Shown here in pieces: positions 271 through 7,195 of a DNA stretch of 7,197 nt (its first letter is position 1; each line of letters starts with the position of its first letter). Source of the stretch: Actinomycetota bacterium (GTDB lineage Bacteria > Actinomycetota > Thermoleophilia > Solirubrobacterales > Solirubrobacteraceae); assembly GCA_019348575.1 (NCBI GenBank), contig JAHWJE010000075.1, forward strand, positions 1-7,197, in the 5' to 3' direction. Made by a program: the position numbers and the translations under genes. The notes under the pieces were generated by a model. It saw only the letters and a program-made list of their open reading frames with translations. It did no database searches and was not told where the DNA came from.

Positions 271-1062
271 TCAGCGCTTGCCGAGCTGGCCGGTCTCGAA
301 CTGCTGCGCGAGGGCGTCTCCGCCGGACCTGCGTGTGACACGGGCCGCGGTCTCGGGAGCGACGCCGCCGAAGAGCGAGCCGAGCTTCAGACCGATCGGC
401 GCCACGTCGATCTCACCGCGATTGCGCTCGATCGCGCGTAGGGTCGCCTCGGCGACCTCCTCGGGCGACTTCGTCCCGACACCGAACGGCAGCTTGACGC
501 CGGCGTCGGCGAACATCCCGGCGTCGCGGATGAAGCCGGGGAAGATCGTCGAGACGCCGACGCCCGTGCCGTGCAGCTCGGCGCGCATCGCGCCGCCGAA
601 GCCGCGCAGGCCGTACTTCGTCGCGTTGTACAGCGAGCTGCCCGCGGTCGCGGTCTTGCCCGAGAGCGACGACATGAAGACGATGTGGCCGCAGCCGCGC
701 TCGACCATGTGCGGGGCGAGCGCGTGCGTGAGGATGATCGGCGCGTGCAGGTTCACGCGCAGCGCGCGTTCGATCTGCTCGTCGTCGTAGGTCTGCAGCC
801 GCCCGGACGCCGGGACGCCGGCGTTGGCCACGAGGATGTCGACGTCGGTGTGCGCCGCCGCCAGCTCGCGCACGGCATCGCGATCGGACAGGTCCGCCGG
901 CGCGACCTCGGCGCCGATCTCGCTCGCCAGCGCGGCGAGCACGTCGCCGCGGCGACCGGACAGCACGAGGCGCGCGCCCGCGGCTGCGAGGCGGCGGGCG
1001 ATCGCGTGGCCGAGACCACCCGTCGCCCCGGTGAGCAGGACCGTCCGTGCGCCGACGTTCAT
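271..1062 (-). CDS. Short-chain dehydrogenase/reductase (classical SDR)
   Basis: The product is 263 residues, normal for a classical SDR, and should be a soluble NAD(P)-dependent oxidoreductase with a Rossmann fold. All hallmark motifs are present: the cofactor glycine motif T11-G-A-T-G-G-L-G18, N80-A-G82, and the catalytic set Asn104, Ser132, Tyr145 and Lys149 (Y-N-A-T-K). Arg37-Arg38 after the second strand suggest preference for NADP(H) over NAD(H). Pro-Gly after strand six is followed by I-R-D-A-G-M-F, the flexible substrate-binding lid. The ATG at 1060-1062 places the glycine motif at the usual distance from the N-terminus. The gene follows the FIST gene by only 10 bases, so the two are probably co-transcribed; no good Shine-Dalgarno sequence is visible before the start. 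The substrate cannot be predicted, because the family covers fatty acyl, steroid, sugar and polyketide substrates. Confidence 0.93.
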   Translation of the reverse strand: MNVGARTVLLTGATGGLGHAIARRLAAAGARLVLSGRRGDVLAALASEIGAEVAPADLSDRDAVRELAAAHTDVDILVANAGVPASGRLQTYDDEQIERALRVNLHAPIILTHALAPHMVERGCGHIVFMSSLSGKTATAGSSLYNATKYGLRGFGGAMRAELHGTGVGVSTIFPGFIRDAGMFADAGVKLPFGVGTKSPEEVAEATLRAIERNRGEIDVAPIGLKLGSLFGGVAPETAARVTRRSGGDALAQQFETGQLGKR

Positions 1063-1072
1063 GGCGCGAAGC

Positions 1073-2236
1073 CTACGACGCGAAGACGGCGACGGTCGCC
1101 GTGAAGCCGTGCAGGAAGTTCTCGCCGCCGACCGGCCCGATCTCGCCCGCCGCGAAGAAGCCGGCCGTCGGGACGTTGCCGAGCGACCCGGCCAGCGCCG
1201 TCGCGTCGTGGTCGGGGACGCCGAACATCCCGCGCCCGCGGCCGTTGCAGGTGAACATCAGCGCCCCCGCGGGCGCGTCGGAGCCCAGCGCCTGGCGGCG
1301 CAGCGCGAGCGCCTCGTGCAGGTCGCGATCGGCCGACCTGGCATCGCGCGCGTGCACCCGAACGACCTGGCCCTCCTCGATCGTCGCGCCGACCGCGATC
1401 GTCCCGGTGTCGGGATCCCCGCCGAGCACGCTGCGCACGAGGAAGTCGCCGTGCTGGTGATCGCTCTGGCCACGCTCGACGACGATCCCCAGCAGCATCC
1501 CCTCCGCGAGCATCTCGCGCTCGGCGGCGTCGAGGCGGTCGAGCACCGCGCGCAGCGCGCCCAGCGCGGGCCGTCCGGCGAGCTCCTTGATCAGCCGCCC
1601 CTCGCCGGCGGTGATCGTCAGCTCCGGCCCGATCGGCGTCGCGCCCTGCGAGACGCAGGGCAGCAGCTCGACGCCGTCGAAGCGCACGCCCACGGCGCCG
1701 CCGGGAACGACGCGCTCGCCCAGGAACAGCGCCGCCTGGCCGCGCAGCGTCCGCACGCTCGAGATGCCGCCCAGGACCGGCACGCCCGGCGAGCGCTCGG
1801 CGAGCTCCGACAGGACCGCGTCGGTCGGAAACGAGTAGGGGTCGGGCAGCAGGATCGCACCGCCCGCGCCCTGCAGGTCCGGCACGCCCGTGATCGCGAC
1901 ACCGTCTTCGACCTCCGTCACCTCGGCGTGGAACGGCGACGCGATCCCGTTCTCGAACGCGGCGGCCCAGACGGCGACGGCGGTGCCGCCCTCGATCTCG
2001 CGCCCGTCGCCGACGACGCCGCCCGCGCCGCAGCCGACCAGCACGTCCGGCTGCAGCGCGTCGTGGACGCCCTCGAGCGTCGCCTCGGGCGCGGCGAGAT
2101 GCGCTCCGCACGCGAACACGGCCGCAAGGTCGATGCTCCTGCCGCGCAGCTCCGCGGCGACCTTCGCCGCGGCCTGCGCCGCACCGGCGCGCGGATCCGC
2201 TGCGGTCGAGAGCCCAGACGCGATGCGCACGCTCAT
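1073..2236 (-). CDS. Stand-alone FIST domain protein (FIST_N + FIST_C)
   Basis: The product is 387 residues with no signal peptide or membrane segment, so it is likely cytoplasmic. The N-terminal half (about 30-190) has the FIST_N pattern, including L-V-G-C-G-A-G-G-V at 66-74 and V-L-G-G-I-S-S at 154-160. The C-terminal half (about 200-380) has FIST_C features: P-I-G-P-E-L-T-I-T at 201-209, F-T-C-N-G-R-G at 328-334, H343-D-A, and a closing G-E-I-G-P segment at 364-368. FIST is known as a predicted small-ligand sensory domain, often fused to kinases, cyclases or methyl-accepting proteins. Here no output domain is attached, so the protein is either a free ligand-binding subunit or has an enzymatic role not yet assigned. 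It starts at ATG 2234-2236, reads away from miaA, and leads the downstream SDR. Shine-Dalgarno-like bases near the start are badly spaced (GAAGG 2 bases, AGGAG 15 bases). Confidence 0.85.
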   Translation of the reverse strand: MSVRIASGLSTAADPRAGAAQAAAKVAAELRGRSIDLAAVFACGAHLAAPEATLEGVHDALQPDVLVGCGAGGVVGDGREIEGGTAVAVWAAAFENGIASPFHAEVTEVEDGVAITGVPDLQGAGGAILLPDPYSFPTDAVLSELAERSPGVPVLGGISSVRTLRGQAALFLGERVVPGGAVGVRFDGVELLPCVSQGATPIGPELTITAGEGRLIKELAGRPALGALRAVLDRLDAAEREMLAEGMLLGIVVERGQSDHQHGDFLVRSVLGGDPDTGTIAVGATIEEGQVVRVHARDARSADRDLHEALALRRQALGSDAPAGALMFTCNGRGRGMFGVPDHDATALAGSLGNVPTAGFFAAGEIGPVGGENFLHGFTATVAVFAS

Positions 2237-2281: not shown

Positions 2282-3184
2282 GTGTCGTCAAACGTGCTCG
2301 CGCTCTTCGGTCCGACGGGCGTCGGCAAGACCGACGTCGCGCTCGCCCTGGCCGACCGGATCCGCGCTCGCGGCGGGCGACCGGTCGCCGTCGCCGCCGA
2401 CGCGCTGCAGGTCTATCGAGGCCTGGAGATCCTGACCGGCGTTCCCGACGAGGCGCAGCGCGCGCGGCTCGAGCACCGCCTCGTCTCCTTCCTGCCGATC
2501 GGCGCGCGCTTCTCGGTCGGCGACTACGCGCAGCTCGCGCACGCCGAGATCGACGGGCTGCTCGCCGAGCAGGCGACGCCGATCGTCGTCGGCGGCACGG
2601 GCCTGTATCTGCGCGCGGCGCTCGGCGAGCTCGCGCTGCGCCCGCCCCCGCCGCCGGGCCTGCGGGAGCACTGGCAGGCCGAGCTGCGCGCGCGCGGGCC
2701 GCAGGCCCTGCACGCCGAGCTCGCACGCGCGGCGCCGTGGGCGGCGCAGGCGATCGACCCGCGCGACCGCCAGCGGATCGTCCGCGCGCTCGAGCTGCAC
2801 GCCCAGGGCGCGCTCGAGCCCCCTTCGAAGACCAGCCAGCTGTGGACGAGCGACACGCGTCACCCGACGCGGCTCGTCGGCCTCGTCCGTGACCGGGAGG
2901 AGCTCTATGCGCGCATCGAAGAGCGCGTCGACGCGATGGTCGCGGCGGGTGCGATCGAGGAGGTGCGCCGCGCGCACGCGGCGGGCGCCTCGCCGACCGC
3001 CCGCGTCGCGCTCGGATTCGAGGAGCTGCTGGCGGGCGACATCGATGCGATGAAGCGCCGCACGCGCAACTACGCTCGCCGCCAGCTCACATGGATGCGC
3101 AAGCTGCCCGACATCGAGATCGTCGACACGACCAGCCAGGATCCGGAGCGCGTCGCGGCCCTCATAGACTCCCCGCCCGCATGA
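2282..3184 (+). CDS. miaA: tRNA dimethylallyltransferase (tRNA A37 isopentenyltransferase) MiaA
   Basis: MiaA transfers a dimethylallyl group from DMAPP to N6 of adenosine 37, next to the anticodon of tRNAs reading codons that begin with U. The product is 300 residues, normal for the family. Visible motifs are the P-loop G10-P-T-G-V-G-K-T17, the catalytic-base region A-A-D40 followed by Q43-V-Y-R-G47, G-G-T106-G-L-Y-L, the D162-R-Q-R-I-V-R-A-L-E segment, and the C-terminal R-Q268-L-T-W-M-R-K. The usual D-I-G-T-A-K-P after Y-R-G is E-I-L-T-G-V-P here, a local divergence. I chose GTG 2282-2284 because the P-loop then starts at residue 10, as is typical; the open frame runs upstream to 824, but only antisense to the FIST and SDR genes. 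No Shine-Dalgarno is seen. The TGA stop overlaps the dapF ATG, so miaA opens the miaA-dapF-dapL operon. Confidence 0.95.
   Translation: MSSNVLALFGPTGVGKTDVALALADRIRARGGRPVAVAADALQVYRGLEILTGVPDEAQRARLEHRLVSFLPIGARFSVGDYAQLAHAEIDGLLAEQATPIVVGGTGLYLRAALGELALRPPPPPGLREHWQAELRARGPQALHAELARAAPWAAQAIDPRDRQRIVRALELHAQGALEPPSKTSQLWTSDTRHPTRLVGLVRDREELYARIEERVDAMVAAGAIEEVRRAHAAGASPTARVALGFEELLAGDIDAMKRRTRNYARRQLTWMRKLPDIEIVDTTSQDPERVAALIDSPPA
3181..3184 (+). promoter_or_regulatory. ATGA stop/start overlap, miaA to dapF
   Basis: The dapF ATG (3181-3183) overlaps the miaA TGA (3182-3184). The preceding 15 bases are C-rich with no Shine-Dalgarno, so dapF translation probably depends on ribosomes terminating on miaA and reinitiating. 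This would fix the DapF/MiaA ratio. Confidence 0.75.
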
Positions 3185-4038
3185 CCGCGATCGCCTTCGA
3201 GAAGTGGCAGGCGCTCGGCAACGACTACCTCATCTTCGAGGAGCGCTCGCTGCCGTACGCCCTCACACCGGCGCGCATCCAGCGCATCTGCGACGTCCAC
3301 AGCGGCGTCGGATCGGACGGCGTCCTGCTGCTGTCCGAACCCGACGAGGCCGGCTTCGTCGCACGGCTGCGGATCTTCAACCCCGACGGCTCGGAGGCCG
3401 GGCTGTCGGGCAACGGGGCACGCGAGGCCGTCATGTTCCTGCGGCGCAACGGCTGGACCGACAGCGATCGCTTCTCGATCCAGACCGGCGCGGGCGAGAT
3501 CCGCCCGTACATCACCGGGCCGGACACGTGCACGCTGGACATGGGCCGAGCGCGCACCTCGTCGGAGGACTTTCCCTCGGGCGACGCCGACGGCACGGGC
3601 GAGCTCGTCGCGGACGGGCGCACGTGGCGCTTCCAGCACGTCCAGGTCGGAAACCCGCAGTGCGCGATCCACCACCCCGACCTCGCCGAGCTCGAGCAGC
3701 TCGACCTCGGCGCGATCGGCCCGGCGATCGAGCGCCACGCGCTCTTTCCCAACCGCACGAACGTCTCCTGGCACGCCGAGCTCGAGCCCGGCGTCATTCG
3801 CGCGCGGATCTTCGAGCGGGGCGGGGGGGAGACGATGTCCTCCGGGACCGGTGCCTGCGGCGCCGCGGTCGCCTACGTCCTTCGCGGCGGCGACTCGCCC
3901 GTGACCGTCCGCCTCGACGGCGGCGAGCTGACGGTCGACGTCGCCGAGGACCTGCACTTCGACCTGACCGGATGGGCGCGTCCCGTCTACCGCGGCGAGC
4001 TCGCCGCCGACTTCTGCACCGAACTGGAGAACCTGTGA
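3181..4038 (+). CDS. dapF: Diaminopimelate epimerase DapF with both catalytic Cys replaced by Ser
   Basis: DapF normally interconverts LL- and meso-diaminopimelate with no cofactor, using two cysteines as acid/base pair; meso-DAP feeds lysine and peptidoglycan synthesis. The product is 285 residues, typical, with the two-lobed family layout. Conserved elements include G13-N-D-Y16, G-V-G-S-D-G, F-N-P-D-G-S-E-A, G-N-G-A-R at 77-81, G-N158-P-Q-C, F-P-N-R-T-N194, and E212-R-G-G-G-E217-T. The residue before G-N-G-A-R (Cys73 of E. coli/H. influenzae) is Ser76, codon TCG at 3406-3408. The residue before G-T-G-A-C (Cys217) is Ser221, codon TCC at 3841-3843. A cysteine survives at 226, after the second motif, but not at the catalytic site. 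The start is fixed by the ATGA overlap with miaA and the usual distance to G-N-D. Function is inferred from family and from dapL next door; activity with a Ser/Ser pair is uncertain, and a different epimerase/isomerase substrate in the same fold cannot be excluded. Confidence 0.9.
   Translation: MTAIAFEKWQALGNDYLIFEERSLPYALTPARIQRICDVHSGVGSDGVLLLSEPDEAGFVARLRIFNPDGSEAGLSGNGAREAVMFLRRNGWTDSDRFSIQTGAGEIRPYITGPDTCTLDMGRARTSSEDFPSGDADGTGELVADGRTWRFQHVQVGNPQCAIHHPDLAELEQLDLGAIGPAIERHALFPNRTNVSWHAELEPGVIRARIFERGGGETMSSGTGACGAAVAYVLRGGDSPVTVRLDGGELTVDVAEDLHFDLTGWARPVYRGELAADFCTELENL
4026..4029 (+). promoter_or_regulatory. Ribosome binding site deciding the dapL GTG start
   Basis: GGAG inside the last codons of dapF lies 5 bases before GTG 4035-4037, a good Shine-Dalgarno spacing. 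It supports this GTG, which overlaps the dapF TGA as GTGA (4035-4038), over any later in-frame start. It also suggests dapL can recruit ribosomes itself as well as by coupling. Confidence 0.65.
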
Positions 4039-5201
4039 AGCCCAGCAAGCGCCTGGACCTGATCCCGCCCTACCTGTTCGCCGAGCTCGAGCGCAAGATC
4101 GCCGCCAAGCGAGCGGCCGGCGTCGACGTCATCTCGCTCGGGATCGGTGATCCCGACCGGCCGACACCGGCGCTGATCGTCGACGCGATGCGCGAGGCCG
4201 TCACCGAGCGCGAGACGCACCGCTACCCGTCCAACCGCGGGCGACAGGACTTCCGCGAGGCCGTCGCGGACTTCTACATGCGTCGCTTCGGCGTCGAGCT
4301 CGATCCCGCGACGCAGATCATGCCCGCGATCGGCGCCAAGGAGTGCATCTTCAACCTCAACCTCGCGTTCCTCGACGCGGGCGACGCGGCGCTCAGCGCC
4401 GACCCCGGCTATCCGGTCTACACGGGGGGGCCGCTGCTGGCGGGCGGCGATCCGGTGCTCATGCCGCTGCTGCCCGAGCACAGCTTCATGCCGAACCTCA
4501 CGTCGATCTCCGACGCCGACCGCGCCCGCGCGAAGCTCATGTTCTTCAACTACCCCAACAACCCGACCGGCGCGGTCGTGCGGCCGGGGTTCTTCGAGGA
4601 GGTCGTCGACTACGTCGGCGGCACCGACATCCTCGCCGTGCACGACAACGCGTACTCGGAGACGACGTACGACGGCTATCGCGCGCCGTCGTTTCTTGCG
4701 ACGCCCGGCGCCAAGGACGTCGGCGTCGAGGTCTTCTCGTGGTCCAAGGGCTACAACATGACCGGCTGGCGCTGCGCGGCGATCGTCGGCAACGGCGAGG
4801 CGATCGAGCACTACTGGCGCCTGAAGACGAACGTCGACTCGGGCCTCTTCGAGGCCGTCCAGCTGGCCGGGATCGCCGCGCTCAGCCCGGACGGCGACGG
4901 CGACGTCAGGGAGATGAACGCGCTCTACGCGCGCCGGCGCGACCTCGTCGTCGACGCGCTGCGCGCGATCGGCGTCGACGTCAGGCCGCCGAAGGGCACG
5001 ATCTACATCTGGGCGCCCGTGCCCGCCGGCTTCGAGACCGCCGCGGGATACTGCGAGCACGTGCTCGAGGAGGCCGGCGTGGCGATCTCGCCGGGCGGCG
5101 CGTACGGCCCCAACGGCGAGGGCTTCTTTCGCATCTCGCTGACGACGCCCGACGCCAGGCTGCTGGAGGCCGTCGAGCGGCTGGGCCGGCTCGCAGGCTG
5201 A
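4035..5201 (+). CDS. dapL: LL-diaminopimelate aminotransferase DapL
   Basis: DapL is a PLP-dependent class I/II (fold type I) aminotransferase that makes LL-diaminopimelate from tetrahydrodipicolinate and glutamate in one step, bypassing the acylated intermediates of the DapD/DapC/DapE route. The 388-residue product has the opening R-L-D-L-I-P-P-Y-L-F and then G-I-G-D-P-D, typical of LL-DAP aminotransferases. PLP-site residues are visible: N-Y-P-N-N176-P-T-G, D204 with Y207 (H-D-N-A-Y), the Schiff-base Lys238 in S-W-S-K-G-Y, N-M-T-G-W-R after it, and the carboxylate-binding Arg366 in F-F-R-I-S-L. The GTG start overlaps the dapF stop. Its position right behind dapF, whose substrate is the DapL product, favours DapL over aspartate or other aminotransferases of similar sequence. 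No sign of truncation or frameshift. Confidence 0.92.
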   Translation: MKPSKRLDLIPPYLFAELERKIAAKRAAGVDVISLGIGDPDRPTPALIVDAMREAVTERETHRYPSNRGRQDFREAVADFYMRRFGVELDPATQIMPAIGAKECIFNLNLAFLDAGDAALSADPGYPVYTGGPLLAGGDPVLMPLLPEHSFMPNLTSISDADRARAKLMFFNYPNNPTGAVVRPGFFEEVVDYVGGTDILAVHDNAYSETTYDGYRAPSFLATPGAKDVGVEVFSWSKGYNMTGWRCAAIVGNGEAIEHYWRLKTNVDSGLFEAVQLAGIAALSPDGDGDVREMNALYARRRDLVVDALRAIGVDVRPPKGTIYIWAPVPAGFETAAGYCEHVLEEAGVAISPGGAYGPNGEGFFRISLTTPDARLLEAVERLGRLAG

Positions 5202-5225: not shown

Positions 5226-6026
5226 ATGCGCTACTGCGGCGTCGACGTCTCGGGGAATCCCGGCAACCAGCAGCTCTGCACGCTGCACGAGCGGCGCGGA
5301 AGCGAAGGATCGGGGATCGAGCTCGTCGCGACGTTCTACGTGCCCGGCAGCGTCGAGTCCGTCGCGCGGACCGTGCTCGGCTTCGGCGGCGAGGCGGTCG
5401 CGGCCGTCGACGCACCCTCGGGACACCGCCTCGACCTGCTGGCGCCCGGCGCTCCGCTGCGTGAGGAGCTCGGCCTGCCCGACGGGCGCTACGAGCGCCA
5501 CCGCGTCTGCGATGCGCTGCTCTTTCGCCGCCGGCTGCCGCTGTACCCGGTTCCGTCGGCCAGCCAGGCGCTCGCCAACTGGGAGCGCTGGATCGGCGTC
5601 GGCTTCGAGCTGTTCGCCGCGCTCGCACCGCTCGGGCTCTACCGGCCGGACGCAGGCGGCGCCCTCGAGGGCACGATCGACCACGGCGCGCTGCGCTTCG
5701 GGCGCCTCTGCGAGACCTATCCCGACGCCGTCTTCTGCTCGATGATCGGCCACCGGCCCTCCCCGAAGCGAACGCCGTGGGGGCTGCAGCAGCGGATCGC
5801 GGCGCTGCGGCTGCGCGGCGTCGTCGACGCCGACGGCGGGCTCTGGCACCGCACGCTCGACGAGCTCGACGCCTGCGCCGCGGCGTACGCCGCCTACGCG
5901 CTCGCGGCCGGCGGCTGGGGAACGTGGGTCGGTGACCCGCGCGAGGGGGTCATCGTGCTGCCCGTCGCCGAGCTGCTGCCGCGCTATGACCCGCTGCCGC
6001 CACCGGCACGCGCGCCGCTGGCCTGA
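5226..6026 (+). CDS. DUF429 family protein (predicted RNase H-like nuclease fold)
   Basis: The product is 266 residues with no signal peptide or membrane segment. The pattern matches DUF429: G-V-D7-V-S-G at the N-terminus, A-V-D62-A-P-S-G, R-x-C-D96 followed by an Arg-rich stretch, a W-x-x-x-G-F-E-L-F helix near 122-130, E163-T-Y-P, P-K-R-T-P-x-G-L-Q-Q-R-I at 180-191, G-G-L-W, and D212-E-L-D215-A-x-A-A-A-Y. The spaced acidic residues Asp7, Asp62, Glu163 and Asp212/Asp215 resemble the metal-binding carboxylates of RNase H-like folds, the basis for predictions that the family is a nuclease; I know of no settled function. It starts 24 bases after dapL, in the same frame, with no alternative start between the stops. 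The nearest Shine-Dalgarno-like GGAG (5205-5208) is 17 bases away, too far for good use. Probably the last gene of the miaA operon. Confidence 0.82.
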   Translation: MRYCGVDVSGNPGNQQLCTLHERRGSEGSGIELVATFYVPGSVESVARTVLGFGGEAVAAVDAPSGHRLDLLAPGAPLREELGLPDGRYERHRVCDALLFRRRLPLYPVPSASQALANWERWIGVGFELFAALAPLGLYRPDAGGALEGTIDHGALRFGRLCETYPDAVFCSMIGHRPSPKRTPWGLQQRIAALRLRGVVDADGGLWHRTLDELDACAAAYAAYALAAGGWGTWVGDPREGVIVLPVAELLPRYDPLPPPARAPLA

Positions 6027-6082: not shown

Positions 6083-7195
6083 TCAAGGGGTGAGCCGGTA
6101 GAAGCGGTAGAAGTCGTGTTCGATCGGCAGGACCTCGACGTTGCCGAATCCGGCCTCCTCGGCGTACTGGCGAAGGGTTCCGGCGCGCATCACCGTGCCG
6201 GTCCCCGCGGCACCTTCCCCGATCATCCCGACGGGAAGGCAGTGAAGGATGCTGAAGCCGTAGTAGAGGCGCTCGATCTCGTCGCACGGCGGGTCGAACT
6301 CGTCGGGCACGCGCTCGTCGCCGACGATCACCACGCCTCCGTCGGCGAGCAGCGCGCGGCACGCCTGCAGGACCCGCACGGGGTAGGACATGTCGTGCAG
6401 AGCCTCGTGGATGTAGACGAGGTCATAGCGCCCGGCCAGCTCCTCGTCGGCGGCGTCGCGCAGGTGGAAGGCGACCCGGTCCCCGAGCCCGCTCTCGGCC
6501 AGGTGGCGCCGCGCCGCCTCGATCGAGGCCGCGTCCATGTCGATCCCGTCGACGCGGACCTTCGGATACCCGCGCGCGATCGCGAGGCTCGAGCGCCCCT
6601 CGCCGCAGGCGACGTCCGCGACGCGCGCCGGCGGGTCGGCCAGCAGCCGCTCGTGCACGTCCGGGACCGCCTTCAGCCACTCCCCGACCAGCAGCTTGTC
6701 GAACATCGGCCGCGTGAACCGGGCCTGTCCCTCGTGCAGGTCGCTGCCGTAGCGCGCGTACGGCACGCCGTCACCGCTGCGAAAGGCGTCCAGCACCGCG
6801 TCGATCGGCTTGACGCATGCGACGACGAGCTGGCTGATCGGCGTCATGTAGTTGAGGCTCGTCTCGTCGAGCAGTGCCTCGTCGTGGCCAGCGGGCAGGT
6901 GGTAGCGGCGCTCCGTGGCGCCCACGCCGGAATCGTCGACCACGAGGATCCCGCCGGCCGCCTGCTGTTCGAGCCACTCGCGCACGTAGCGCTCGTGCGT
7001 CTCGGTGATCTCGGCGAGCTCCTTCGAGGAGAGCGCTCCGCGATCCGACAGTGCCCTATAGAGGCCGAGCCGGTCACCGAGGTAGACACCGAGCACCTCC
7101 ATGGCTCCGAGCGCCGACTGGAACAGACGCTCGACGAGCGCTTCGCGCCTGGACGCCGCTGCCTCCGTGGCCGGCTCGGGGATAGTCGGGCTCAT
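6083..7195 (-). CDS. Class I SAM-dependent methyltransferase with N-terminal winged-helix-like region (Rv2258c-like)
   Basis: The product is 370 residues if translation begins at ATG 7193-7195. Residues about 20-105 look like the winged-helix dimerisation region of O-methyltransferase-like proteins: G-x-Y-L-G-D-R-L-G-L-Y, then T-x-E-R-Y-V-R-E-W-L-E. A helical linker (about 110-180) carries Y-M-x-P-I and R-F-T-R-P-M-F-D. The Rossmann methyltransferase domain follows: motif I V-A-D194-V-A-C-G198-E-G, an acidic residue for the SAM ribose at D219 (G-I-D-M-D), D-A-A-D around 247-250, and D-L-V-Y-I-H-E-A-L-H-D at 258-268. This arrangement matches Rv2258c-type methyltransferases, whose substrate is not established. 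A possible extension beyond the window cannot be excluded, since the upstream frame is not closed by a stop in the two visible bases. It converges on the DUF429 gene, so it belongs to a separate transcript. It could act on a small-molecule hydroxyl or amine; the sequence does not say which. Confidence 0.88.
   Translation of the reverse strand: MSPTIPEPATEAAASRREALVERLFQSALGAMEVLGVYLGDRLGLYRALSDRGALSSKELAEITETHERYVREWLEQQAAGGILVVDDSGVGATERRYHLPAGHDEALLDETSLNYMTPISQLVVACVKPIDAVLDAFRSGDGVPYARYGSDLHEGQARFTRPMFDKLLVGEWLKAVPDVHERLLADPPARVADVACGEGRSSLAIARGYPKVRVDGIDMDAASIEAARRHLAESGLGDRVAFHLRDAADEELAGRYDLVYIHEALHDMSYPVRVLQACRALLADGGVVIVGDERVPDEFDPPCDEIERLYYGFSILHCLPVGMIGEGAAGTGTVMRAGTLRQYAEEAGFGNVEVLPIEHDFYRFYRLTP

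What the first reader, a model, noticed from the sequence alone, without database searches (positions are those of the whole stretch)
3181..4038. DapF with a Ser/Ser pair in place of the catalytic Cys/Cys pair
By motif alignment with E. coli DapF, the residue preceding GNGAR (Cys73) is Ser76 (TCG, 3406-3408) and the residue preceding the second G-x-G-A-C motif (Cys217) is Ser221 (TCC, 3841-3843). Everything around them is conserved: GND, FNPDGSE, GNP, the FPxRxN Asn, and ERGxGET. The gene sits in an intact operon with dapL, so this does not look like decay. TCG cannot arise from a Cys codon (TGC/TGT) by one substitution, and both sites changed, so sequencing error is unlikely. In DapF, Cys-to-Ser substitutions are known to impair epimerisation severely. 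In the wider DapF/proline racemase superfamily, however, Cys/Thr and Ser/Cys pairs are known in enzymes with altered reactions. Possibilities are a Ser/Ser epimerase with shifted chemistry, a DapF with another substrate, or an inactive paralogue with LL-DAP used in the wall.
Basis: partly seen in the sequence, partly recalled or inferred. Interest (0 to 1): 0.75.

Follow-up and report, generated by a model that had tools for sequence, protein, structure and literature searches.

The report
Serine-paired diaminopimelate epimerase across Thermoleophilia
A cell-wall and lysine enzyme that textbooks say works with two cysteines carries two serines instead in most sampled genomes of one class of soil bacteria, often as the only copy found, so two serines probably can do a job thought to need two cysteines.

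Summary
The window's DapF (3181-4038, +) has Ser76 (TCG) and Ser221 (TCC) where DapF has its catalytic Cys pair. It is no isolated oddity: of 299 genomes of the same class, 280 have a DapF; those read gave 181 Ser/Ser, 88 Cys/Cys, 5 Ser/Cys. Cys/Ser and Ser/Cys occur in further genomes of the phylum. Serine is kept with mixed TCN and AGY codons. DAP-binding residues are invariant in the clade. In 20 of 20 chosen Ser/Ser genomes there is one DapF, plus LysA and MurE; DAP dehydrogenase is over cut-off in 2 of 299. Conexibacter woesei, with a published meso-DAP wall, has only the Ser/Ser form. Best reading: a working LL-DAP/meso-DAP epimerase with a Ser/Ser acid-base pair. Activity is inferred, not measured. 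Against it: Cys-to-Ser mutants of a related racemase are crippled, and the window's clade also replaced a catalytic His by Gln. Ser/Cys and Ser/Thr pairs are published in the proline racemase superfamily; my searches found no report of a Ser/Ser DapF. New variant of a known kind.

The parts
3181..4038 (+). dapF, Ser/Ser form, 285 aa
   Evidence: TIGR00652 185.6 bits, cut-off 114.65; PF01678; translation
3406..3408 (+). Ser76 codon TCG, at the place of H. influenzae Cys73
   Evidence: raw sequence; alignment to solved DapFs
3841..3843 (+). Ser221 codon TCC, at the place of H. influenzae Cys217
   Evidence: raw sequence; alignment to solved DapFs
3658..3660 (+). Gln160 codon, at the place of the GNPH histidine (H. 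influenzae His159); Gln in 110 of 110 sequences of the window's Ser/Ser group, His in 46 of 46 Cys/Cys
   Evidence: His159 named catalytic in PMC3581254 (passages)
2300..3184 (+). miaA, tRNA dimethylallyltransferase, directly upstream (start not settled)
   Evidence: TIGR00174 167.2 bits, cut-off 148.65
4035..5201 (+). dapL, LL-diaminopimelate aminotransferase; GTG start overlaps the dapF stop (GTGA)
   Evidence: NF006756 518.3 bits, cut-off 507; TIGR03540 493.0 bits is below its cut-off of 593.25 (scanned from 4038); overlap read

Best explanation
The gene is the organism's own DapF, mostly kept in the miaA-dapF-dapL order, and it most likely interconverts LL-DAP and meso-DAP with Ser76 and Ser221 as the two acid/base groups on opposite faces of the alpha carbon. 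Shown: both residues are serine and are kept as serine; the residues that hold DAP are unchanged; in the chosen Ser/Ser genomes it is the only DapF-family protein over cut-off; DAP dehydrogenase is nearly absent; LysA and MurE are present; the walls of the order are reported to hold meso-DAP. Inferred: that the enzyme is active, and how. [quoted passage not shown] A slower, one-sided or solvent-assisted variant cannot be told apart from this by sequence.
For: Class census: DapF in 280 of 299 genomes; states read: Ser/Ser 181, Cys/Cys 88, Ser/Cys 5, Cys/Cys plus Ser/Ser 1, five incomplete. Serine kept with mixed codons in 111 Ser/Ser sequences: site 76 TCN 107, AGY 4; site 221 TCN 86, AGY 25. 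Asn14, Asn67, Asn78, Asn158, Asn194, Glu212, Arg213, Thr223 identical in 110 of 110; the eight corresponding residues almost abolish C. glutamicum DapF activity when changed to Ala (PMC5296763, passages). One PF01678 protein over cut-off in 22 of 22 chosen Ser/Ser genomes, 20 of them without any other match. TIGR01921 DAP dehydrogenase over cut-off in 2 of 299. LysA over cut-off in 20 of 20, MurE in 20 of 20, DNPR motif in 20 of 20. G206 is Conexibacter woesei by a 100% identical protein of that name on a 6,359,369-base contig; its peptidoglycan is A1-gamma with meso-DAP, stated as diagnostic for all Solirubrobacterales (PMC3035278, passage); Solirubrobacter deserti also meso-DAP (PMC10722151, passages). 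Gene order, loci with at least 600 bases of room: miaA upstream in 86 of 104 and dapL downstream in 72 of 106 Ser/Ser loci, against 38 of 44 and 41 of 43 for Cys/Cys. Mixed pairs exist in this phylum, Ser/Cys and Cys/Ser, so each site seems to tolerate Ser on its own. In the same fold a natural Ser/Cys pair epimerises hydroxyproline and a Ser/Thr pair dehydrates it (PMC4113996, passages). Rough dN/dS 0.19-0.32 to L001-L005.
Against: No activity has been measured. Cys-to-Ser mutants of a DapF-like histidine racemase have greatly reduced turnover (PMC11602996, passages), and Cys-to-Ser mutation is a usual way to hinder catalysis for crystals of DapF and its kin (PMC12039745, passage; DapF examples 2q9h and 2q9j). 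Cys is said to be favoured over Ser for pKa and desolvation (PMC8142540, section 7). The window's clade has also replaced the catalytic His by Gln, which could mean loss or change of activity. In 34 of 106 Ser/Ser loci with room, dapL was not found on the same strand within 500 bases downstream, against 2 of 43 Cys/Cys. An unrelated epimerase cannot be ruled out by family searches; C. woesei (G206) has three weak matches to the DAP dehydrogenase model, all far below cut-off (22 to 23 vs 180.6 bits), not looked at further. Completeness of the genomes is not told and nearly all are unnamed, so the meso-DAP link rests on one identified species and general statements.
Confidence: 0.66

Rival explanations
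1. The Ser/Ser protein no longer epimerises DAP at a useful rate; it is kept for another role (another amino acid, a dehydration, or a non-catalytic role), and an unrecognised enzyme makes meso-DAP.
For: Cys-to-Ser mutants of a relative have greatly reduced turnover (PMC11602996, passages); in the window's clade His160 is Gln and Glu196 is Ser as well; a Ser/Thr member of the wider fold is a dehydratase (PMC4113996, passages).
Against: The eight DAP-binding residues are invariant in 110 of 110; dapL is next door in 72 of 106 loci with room; single DapF in 20 of 20; LysA, which is recalled to need meso-DAP, in 20 of 20; DAP dehydrogenase over cut-off in 2 of 299.
Confidence: 0.22
2. An epimerase of altered chemistry: DAP is still the substrate, but the enzyme works one way or slowly (as described for a Cys/Thr aspartate/glutamate racemase), relying on draw-off by LysA and MurE.
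For: A Cys/Thr racemase is irreversible (PMC8142540 section 7); His-to-Gln change in the window's clade.
Against: The Ser/Ser pair is symmetric, unlike Cys/Thr; no kinetic evidence either way.
Confidence: 0.1
3. Sequencing error, pseudogene or misalignment.
For: The window carries Gly215 where 107 of 110 relatives have Val, in a G-rich run.
Against: 121 of 121, 120 of 120 and 120 of 120 in two further hit lists, 181 class genomes; solved-structure alignments and model agree.
Confidence: 0.01

Closest known systems
Diaminopimelate epimerase DapF (TIGR00652, PF01678; H. influenzae, E. coli, C. glutamicum, Anabaena)
   Different: Ser/Ser in place of Cys/Cys; in the window's clade Gln in place of the GNPH His, and Ser at position 196 in place of the Glu seen in 46 of 46 Cys/Cys class sequences
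Ser/Cys 4-hydroxyproline 2-epimerase and Ser/Thr trans-3-hydroxyproline dehydratase of the proline racemase superfamily (PMC4113996, passages)
   Same: Same superfold, a natural catalytic Ser at the first site
   Different: Other substrate, not DapF; second site Cys or Thr, not Ser
Cys/Thr aspartate/glutamate racemases (PMC8142540 section 7)
   Same: A hydroxyl residue replaces one Cys base in a cofactor-independent amino-acid racemase
   Different: Only one of two replaced; another fold (recalled)
DapF C73S and C217S laboratory mutants (2q9h, 2q9j; titles)
   Same: Same substitutions, one at a time
   Different: Single, engineered; H. influenzae background (recalled from the numbering and 1bwz)

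Membership tests
Diaminopimelate epimerase (DapF) | Whole-protein match to the curated DapF model over cut-off | tested here: met
   TIGR00652 185.6 vs 114.65 bits; PF01678 130.3 vs 34.7
Diaminopimelate epimerase (DapF) | DapF fold of two mirrored alpha/beta halves | tested here: met
   Model pLDDT 93.2; best PDB matches are DapFs and O-ureidoserine racemase
Diaminopimelate epimerase (DapF) | DAP-binding residues (five Asn, Glu, Arg, Thr) | tested here: met
   Asn14, 67, 78, 158, 194, Glu212, Arg213, Thr223, each 110 of 110
Diaminopimelate epimerase (DapF) | Catalytic Cys/Cys pair | tested here: not met
   Ser76/Ser221; so it is filed as a DapF-family protein of variant active site, not as a classical Cys/Cys DapF
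Diaminopimelate epimerase (DapF) | GNPH histidine named catalytic in H. influenzae (His159) | tested here: not met
   Gln160; Gln in 110 of 110, His in 46 of 46 Cys/Cys
Diaminopimelate epimerase (DapF) | LL-DAP/meso-DAP epimerase activity | not testable with these tools
   No assay; inferred from genome content and wall chemistry
O-ureidoserine racemase (DcsC) | Cycloserine gene cluster around the gene | tested here: not met
   In the window the neighbours are an SDR, a FIST protein, miaA, dapL, DUF429 and a methyltransferase; that DcsC belongs to such a cluster is recalled
Proline racemase superfamily (ProR, 4HypE, t3HypD) | Match to the proline racemase family rather than DapF | tested here: not met
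   Pfam scan at E 0.001 gives PF01678 only

The most novel reading that the evidence does not exclude
A class of bacteria runs its essential DAP epimerisation on a Ser/Ser pair: alcohols doing two-base alpha-proton transfer (C-H pKa about 29) without cofactor, with no thiol at the catalytic sites and so insensitive to the disulfide inactivation and thiol-directed inhibitors that affect Cys/Cys DapF. All four pairings (Cys/Cys, Cys/Ser, Ser/Cys, Ser/Ser) exist as living steps in one phylum.
Probability: 0.55. Interest if true: 0.85.

Novelty: new variant of a known kind. Interest (0 to 1): 0.72.

Why it matters
DapF is a model for cofactor-independent thiol-thiolate racemisation and a drug target. 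If a lineage-wide Ser/Ser form is active, the thiol pair is not required, which bears on how enzymes remove a very weakly acidic proton. It also gives a natural series (Cys/Cys, Cys/Ser, Ser/Cys, Ser/Ser) for testing that question directly, predicts natural resistance to thiol-directed DapF inhibitors and to oxidation, and means that a missing Cys pair should not be used to call a DapF dead in genome annotation.

Tried and rejected
Rejected: sequencing error, pseudogene, misalignment. Rejected as the general source of meso-DAP: DAP dehydrogenase, any match in 27 of 299 class genomes but over cut-off in 2, one Ser/Ser (G262) and one Cys/Cys (G042, L288). Separate origins of Ser/Ser: the first tree (115 chosen sequences, catalytic columns masked) put 69 of 70 Ser/Ser rows in one branch, SH-aLRT 100, the odd one being L201, with the four Ser/Cys rows apart. 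The wider tree (71 chosen sequences) needed more changes, but a test without L326, L013 and L183 did not reject one Ser/Ser clade (p 0.322; without the P0244 type 0.358). So several origins are possible, not shown. dN/dS is rough: 0.19-0.32 to L001-L005, rising to 0.62 against C. woesei in GC-rich DNA.

Limits of the census: states were read from one or a few fetched genes per genome, and the 19 class genomes without a match were not followed up. G061 holds a second DapF (C122, listed) that I did not fetch; only its divergent Ser/Ser gene (C119, L201) was read, and it is counted among the 181. G142 has one Cys/Cys gene and one divergent Ser/Ser-like gene (L326). Of the first 12 genomes, G009 has Ser/Ser plus a Cys/Cys gene (L013), and G006 and G007 have two Ser/Ser genes each. 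In the phylum search (266 of 296 genomes with a match) only 32 loci were read: 26 Cys/Cys, 5 Cys/Ser, 1 Ser/Cys; two of them (L369, L370) lie in genomes already in the class draw, so 30 genomes were new (24, 5, 1). Their class is not told, so some may belong to the same class. The 20 Ser/Ser genomes were chosen by me for size or long contigs and are not all complete; G244 and G280 were added because of a third match, which proved weak and below cut-off and was not fetched. Side-chain distances in the model were not measured. No genome is held for the window itself.

Literature: ten searches of the held open-access library (two searches were about cell walls). None listed a paper that reports a Ser/Ser DapF, judged by titles, starts of abstracts and the passages I read; two searches listed only 20 of 754 and 10 of 15 papers, and subscription papers are not covered.

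Full report
What was claimed and what is there. The frame translates to 285 aa, passes the curated DapF cut-off and has Ser76 (TCG, 3406-3408) and Ser221 (TCC, 3841-3843) at the two catalytic positions. The gene lies between miaA and an LL-DAP aminotransferase gene, and its stop overlaps the dapL start.

It is a lineage trait. The 120 listed homologues (of 8000 hits; one is the window's own protein) and the query are Ser/Ser by motif. So are the 120 listed hits of the C. woesei protein and the 120 listed hits of a divergent protein from G061 (names in the last list include Thermoleophilia and Verrucomicrobia). All 12 named loci of genome contigs, MAGs titled Solirubrobacteraceae, Solirubrobacterales or Actinomycetota/Actinobacteria, carry it (second site of L012). 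In an even draw of 299 genomes of the class of G001 (G001 is the genome of L001, a Solirubrobacteraceae MAG), 280 have a DapF. A state was read for all 280: Ser/Ser 181, Cys/Cys 88, Ser/Cys 5, both Cys/Cys and Ser/Ser 1, incomplete 5. The Ser/Ser genes fall into at least two sorts by position 160: Gln (101 genomes, the window's sort) and His (80), with Phe in one divergent gene. In the phylum draw, 30 further genomes, class not told, gave 24 Cys/Cys, 5 Cys/Ser and 1 Ser/Cys.

Serine itself is kept. Among 111 Ser/Ser sequences, site 76 uses TCN in 107 and AGY in 4, site 221 TCN in 86 and AGY in 25. On the tree the window's branch holds Ser/Ser rows only, 69 of 69. The eight residues that hold DAP are identical in 110 of 110; each of their C. 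glutamicum counterparts nearly abolishes activity when changed to Ala, as do both cysteines (PMC5296763, passages).

Concerted changes in the window's clade. Comparing 110 Ser/Ser with 46 Cys/Cys class sequences, these positions besides the two cysteines are nearly fixed to different residues: His to Gln 160 (110 vs 46), Ala to Gly 227 (110 vs 46), Val to Ile 210 (110 vs 46), Glu to Ser 196 (109 vs 46), Gly to Ala 11 (109 vs 43), Trp to Phe 211 (103 vs 45). His159 of H. influenzae is listed as catalytic along with Cys73, Glu208 and Cys217 (PMC3581254, passages). Thus three of four named catalytic residues differ here and the Glu is kept. Of the 80 Ser/Ser sequences read later, 79 keep the His. 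I read this as a remodelled active site in the window's clade; it could equally signal altered chemistry.

Is it the cell's only source of meso-DAP? In 22 chosen Ser/Ser genomes each has one PF01678 protein over cut-off; 20 have no other match, two (G244, G280) have one more weak match under the cut-off. DAP dehydrogenase is over cut-off in 2 of 299; G206 has three weak matches at 22 to 23 bits against a cut-off of 180.6. LysA is over cut-off in 20 of 20 and MurE in 20 of 20, with the DNPR motif in 20 of 20 (that the motif marks DAP-adding MurE is recalled, and it does not tell LL from meso). G206 is Conexibacter woesei: its protein is 100% identical to one so named, on a contig of 6,359,369 bases, and the published genome is 6.36 Mb (PMC6113628, passage). 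Its wall is A1-gamma with meso-DAP, stated as diagnostic for all Solirubrobacterales (PMC3035278, passage). For the second Ser/Ser sort I have no wall data.

Gene order. With at least 600 bases of room, miaA lies upstream on the same strand within 500 bases in 86 of 104 Ser/Ser loci and 38 of 44 Cys/Cys loci, dapL downstream in 72 of 106 and 41 of 43; the five Ser/Cys loci have both. In 34 of 106 Ser/Ser loci dapL was not so placed; 87 of the 106 have some dapL-like match on the locus, so 15 of the 34 have one in another place or on the other strand. The Ser/Ser gene is therefore mostly the positional counterpart of the Cys/Cys gene, with more rearrangement.

Could two serines do it? Precedents in the wider superfold: a natural Ser/Cys pair catalyses two-base 4-hydroxyproline epimerisation, and a Ser/Thr pair dehydrates 3-hydroxyproline with Ser as catalyst; the same paper says that some clusters of that superfamily lack one or both cysteines (PMC4113996, passages). 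Against: Cys-to-Ser mutants of a histidine racemase are greatly reduced (PMC11602996, passages), and a review explains why Cys is preferred and names no Ser/Ser pair in its section on active-site bases (PMC8142540, section 7). A protein evolved with Ser may differ from a Cys protein mutated to Ser; the natural Ser/Cys and Cys/Ser DapFs suggest that each step is tolerated in living lineages.

Origin. On a tree with the catalytic columns masked, the window's clade is one branch (SH-aLRT 100) and the Ser/Cys rows are a separate branch (98) among Cys/Cys rows. With the second Ser/Ser sort added, several gains are the best fit, but a single Ser/Ser clade is not rejected.

Verdict. A real variant of DapF, the commonest form in the class sample, most likely an active Ser/Ser DAP epimerase (0.66). 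What is missing is one enzyme assay. A tempting adaptive reading, untested: Cys/Cys DapF of C. glutamicum is proposed to be switched off by oxidation through a disulfide between the catalytic cysteines (PMC5296763, passages), which a Ser/Ser enzyme cannot form, and Solirubrobacter is abundant in deserts and high-UV soils (PMC10722151, start of abstract in listing).

Noticed in passing
window 3823-3825 (Gly215): The window has ERGGGET where 107 of 110 clade members have Val at this place; the codon sits in a G-rich run, so it may be a polymorphism or an assembly error.
   Followed up: no
L387, L388, L394, L395, L396 (phylum genomes G485, G356, G331, G465, G377): DapF with the reverse mixed pair Cys/Ser (CGNG ... 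ASGSG/ASGTG), in 5 of 30 extra phylum genomes read; hosts unnamed.
   Followed up: partly
L047, L049, L061, L063, L070 (class) and L397 (phylum): DapF with Ser/Cys; the five class loci lie between miaA and dapL, and the four of them used in the tree form one branch among Cys/Cys relatives.
   Followed up: partly
L201 (G061:C119) and P0242-P0361: A further, divergent Ser/Ser DapF-like family (EKSGNGLRI ... GAGYTLASGSSS), 120 of 120 listed hits Ser/Ser, with names from Verrucomicrobia and Thermoleophilia; whether its hosts have another DapF is unknown, except G061, which has one.
   Followed up: partly
L326 (G142:C252): A very divergent DapF-like protein (SANGA ... SSGTG) beside a Cys/Cys DapF in the same genome, with Phe at position 160; likely a paralogue of other function.
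   Followed up: no
window 1073-2236 (-): FIST N plus FIST C domain protein, next to an SDR oxidoreductase at 271-1062 (-).
   Followed up: no
window 5226-6026 (+) and 6083-7195 (-): DUF429 protein and a methyltransferase with a Rv2258c-like winged helix domain.
   Followed up: no
L203 (G262:C1): A Ser/Ser genome that also has a clear DAP dehydrogenase (444 bits) and two LysA genes over cut-off plus two weaker matches; a natural case for testing whether its DapF is dispensable.
   Followed up: no
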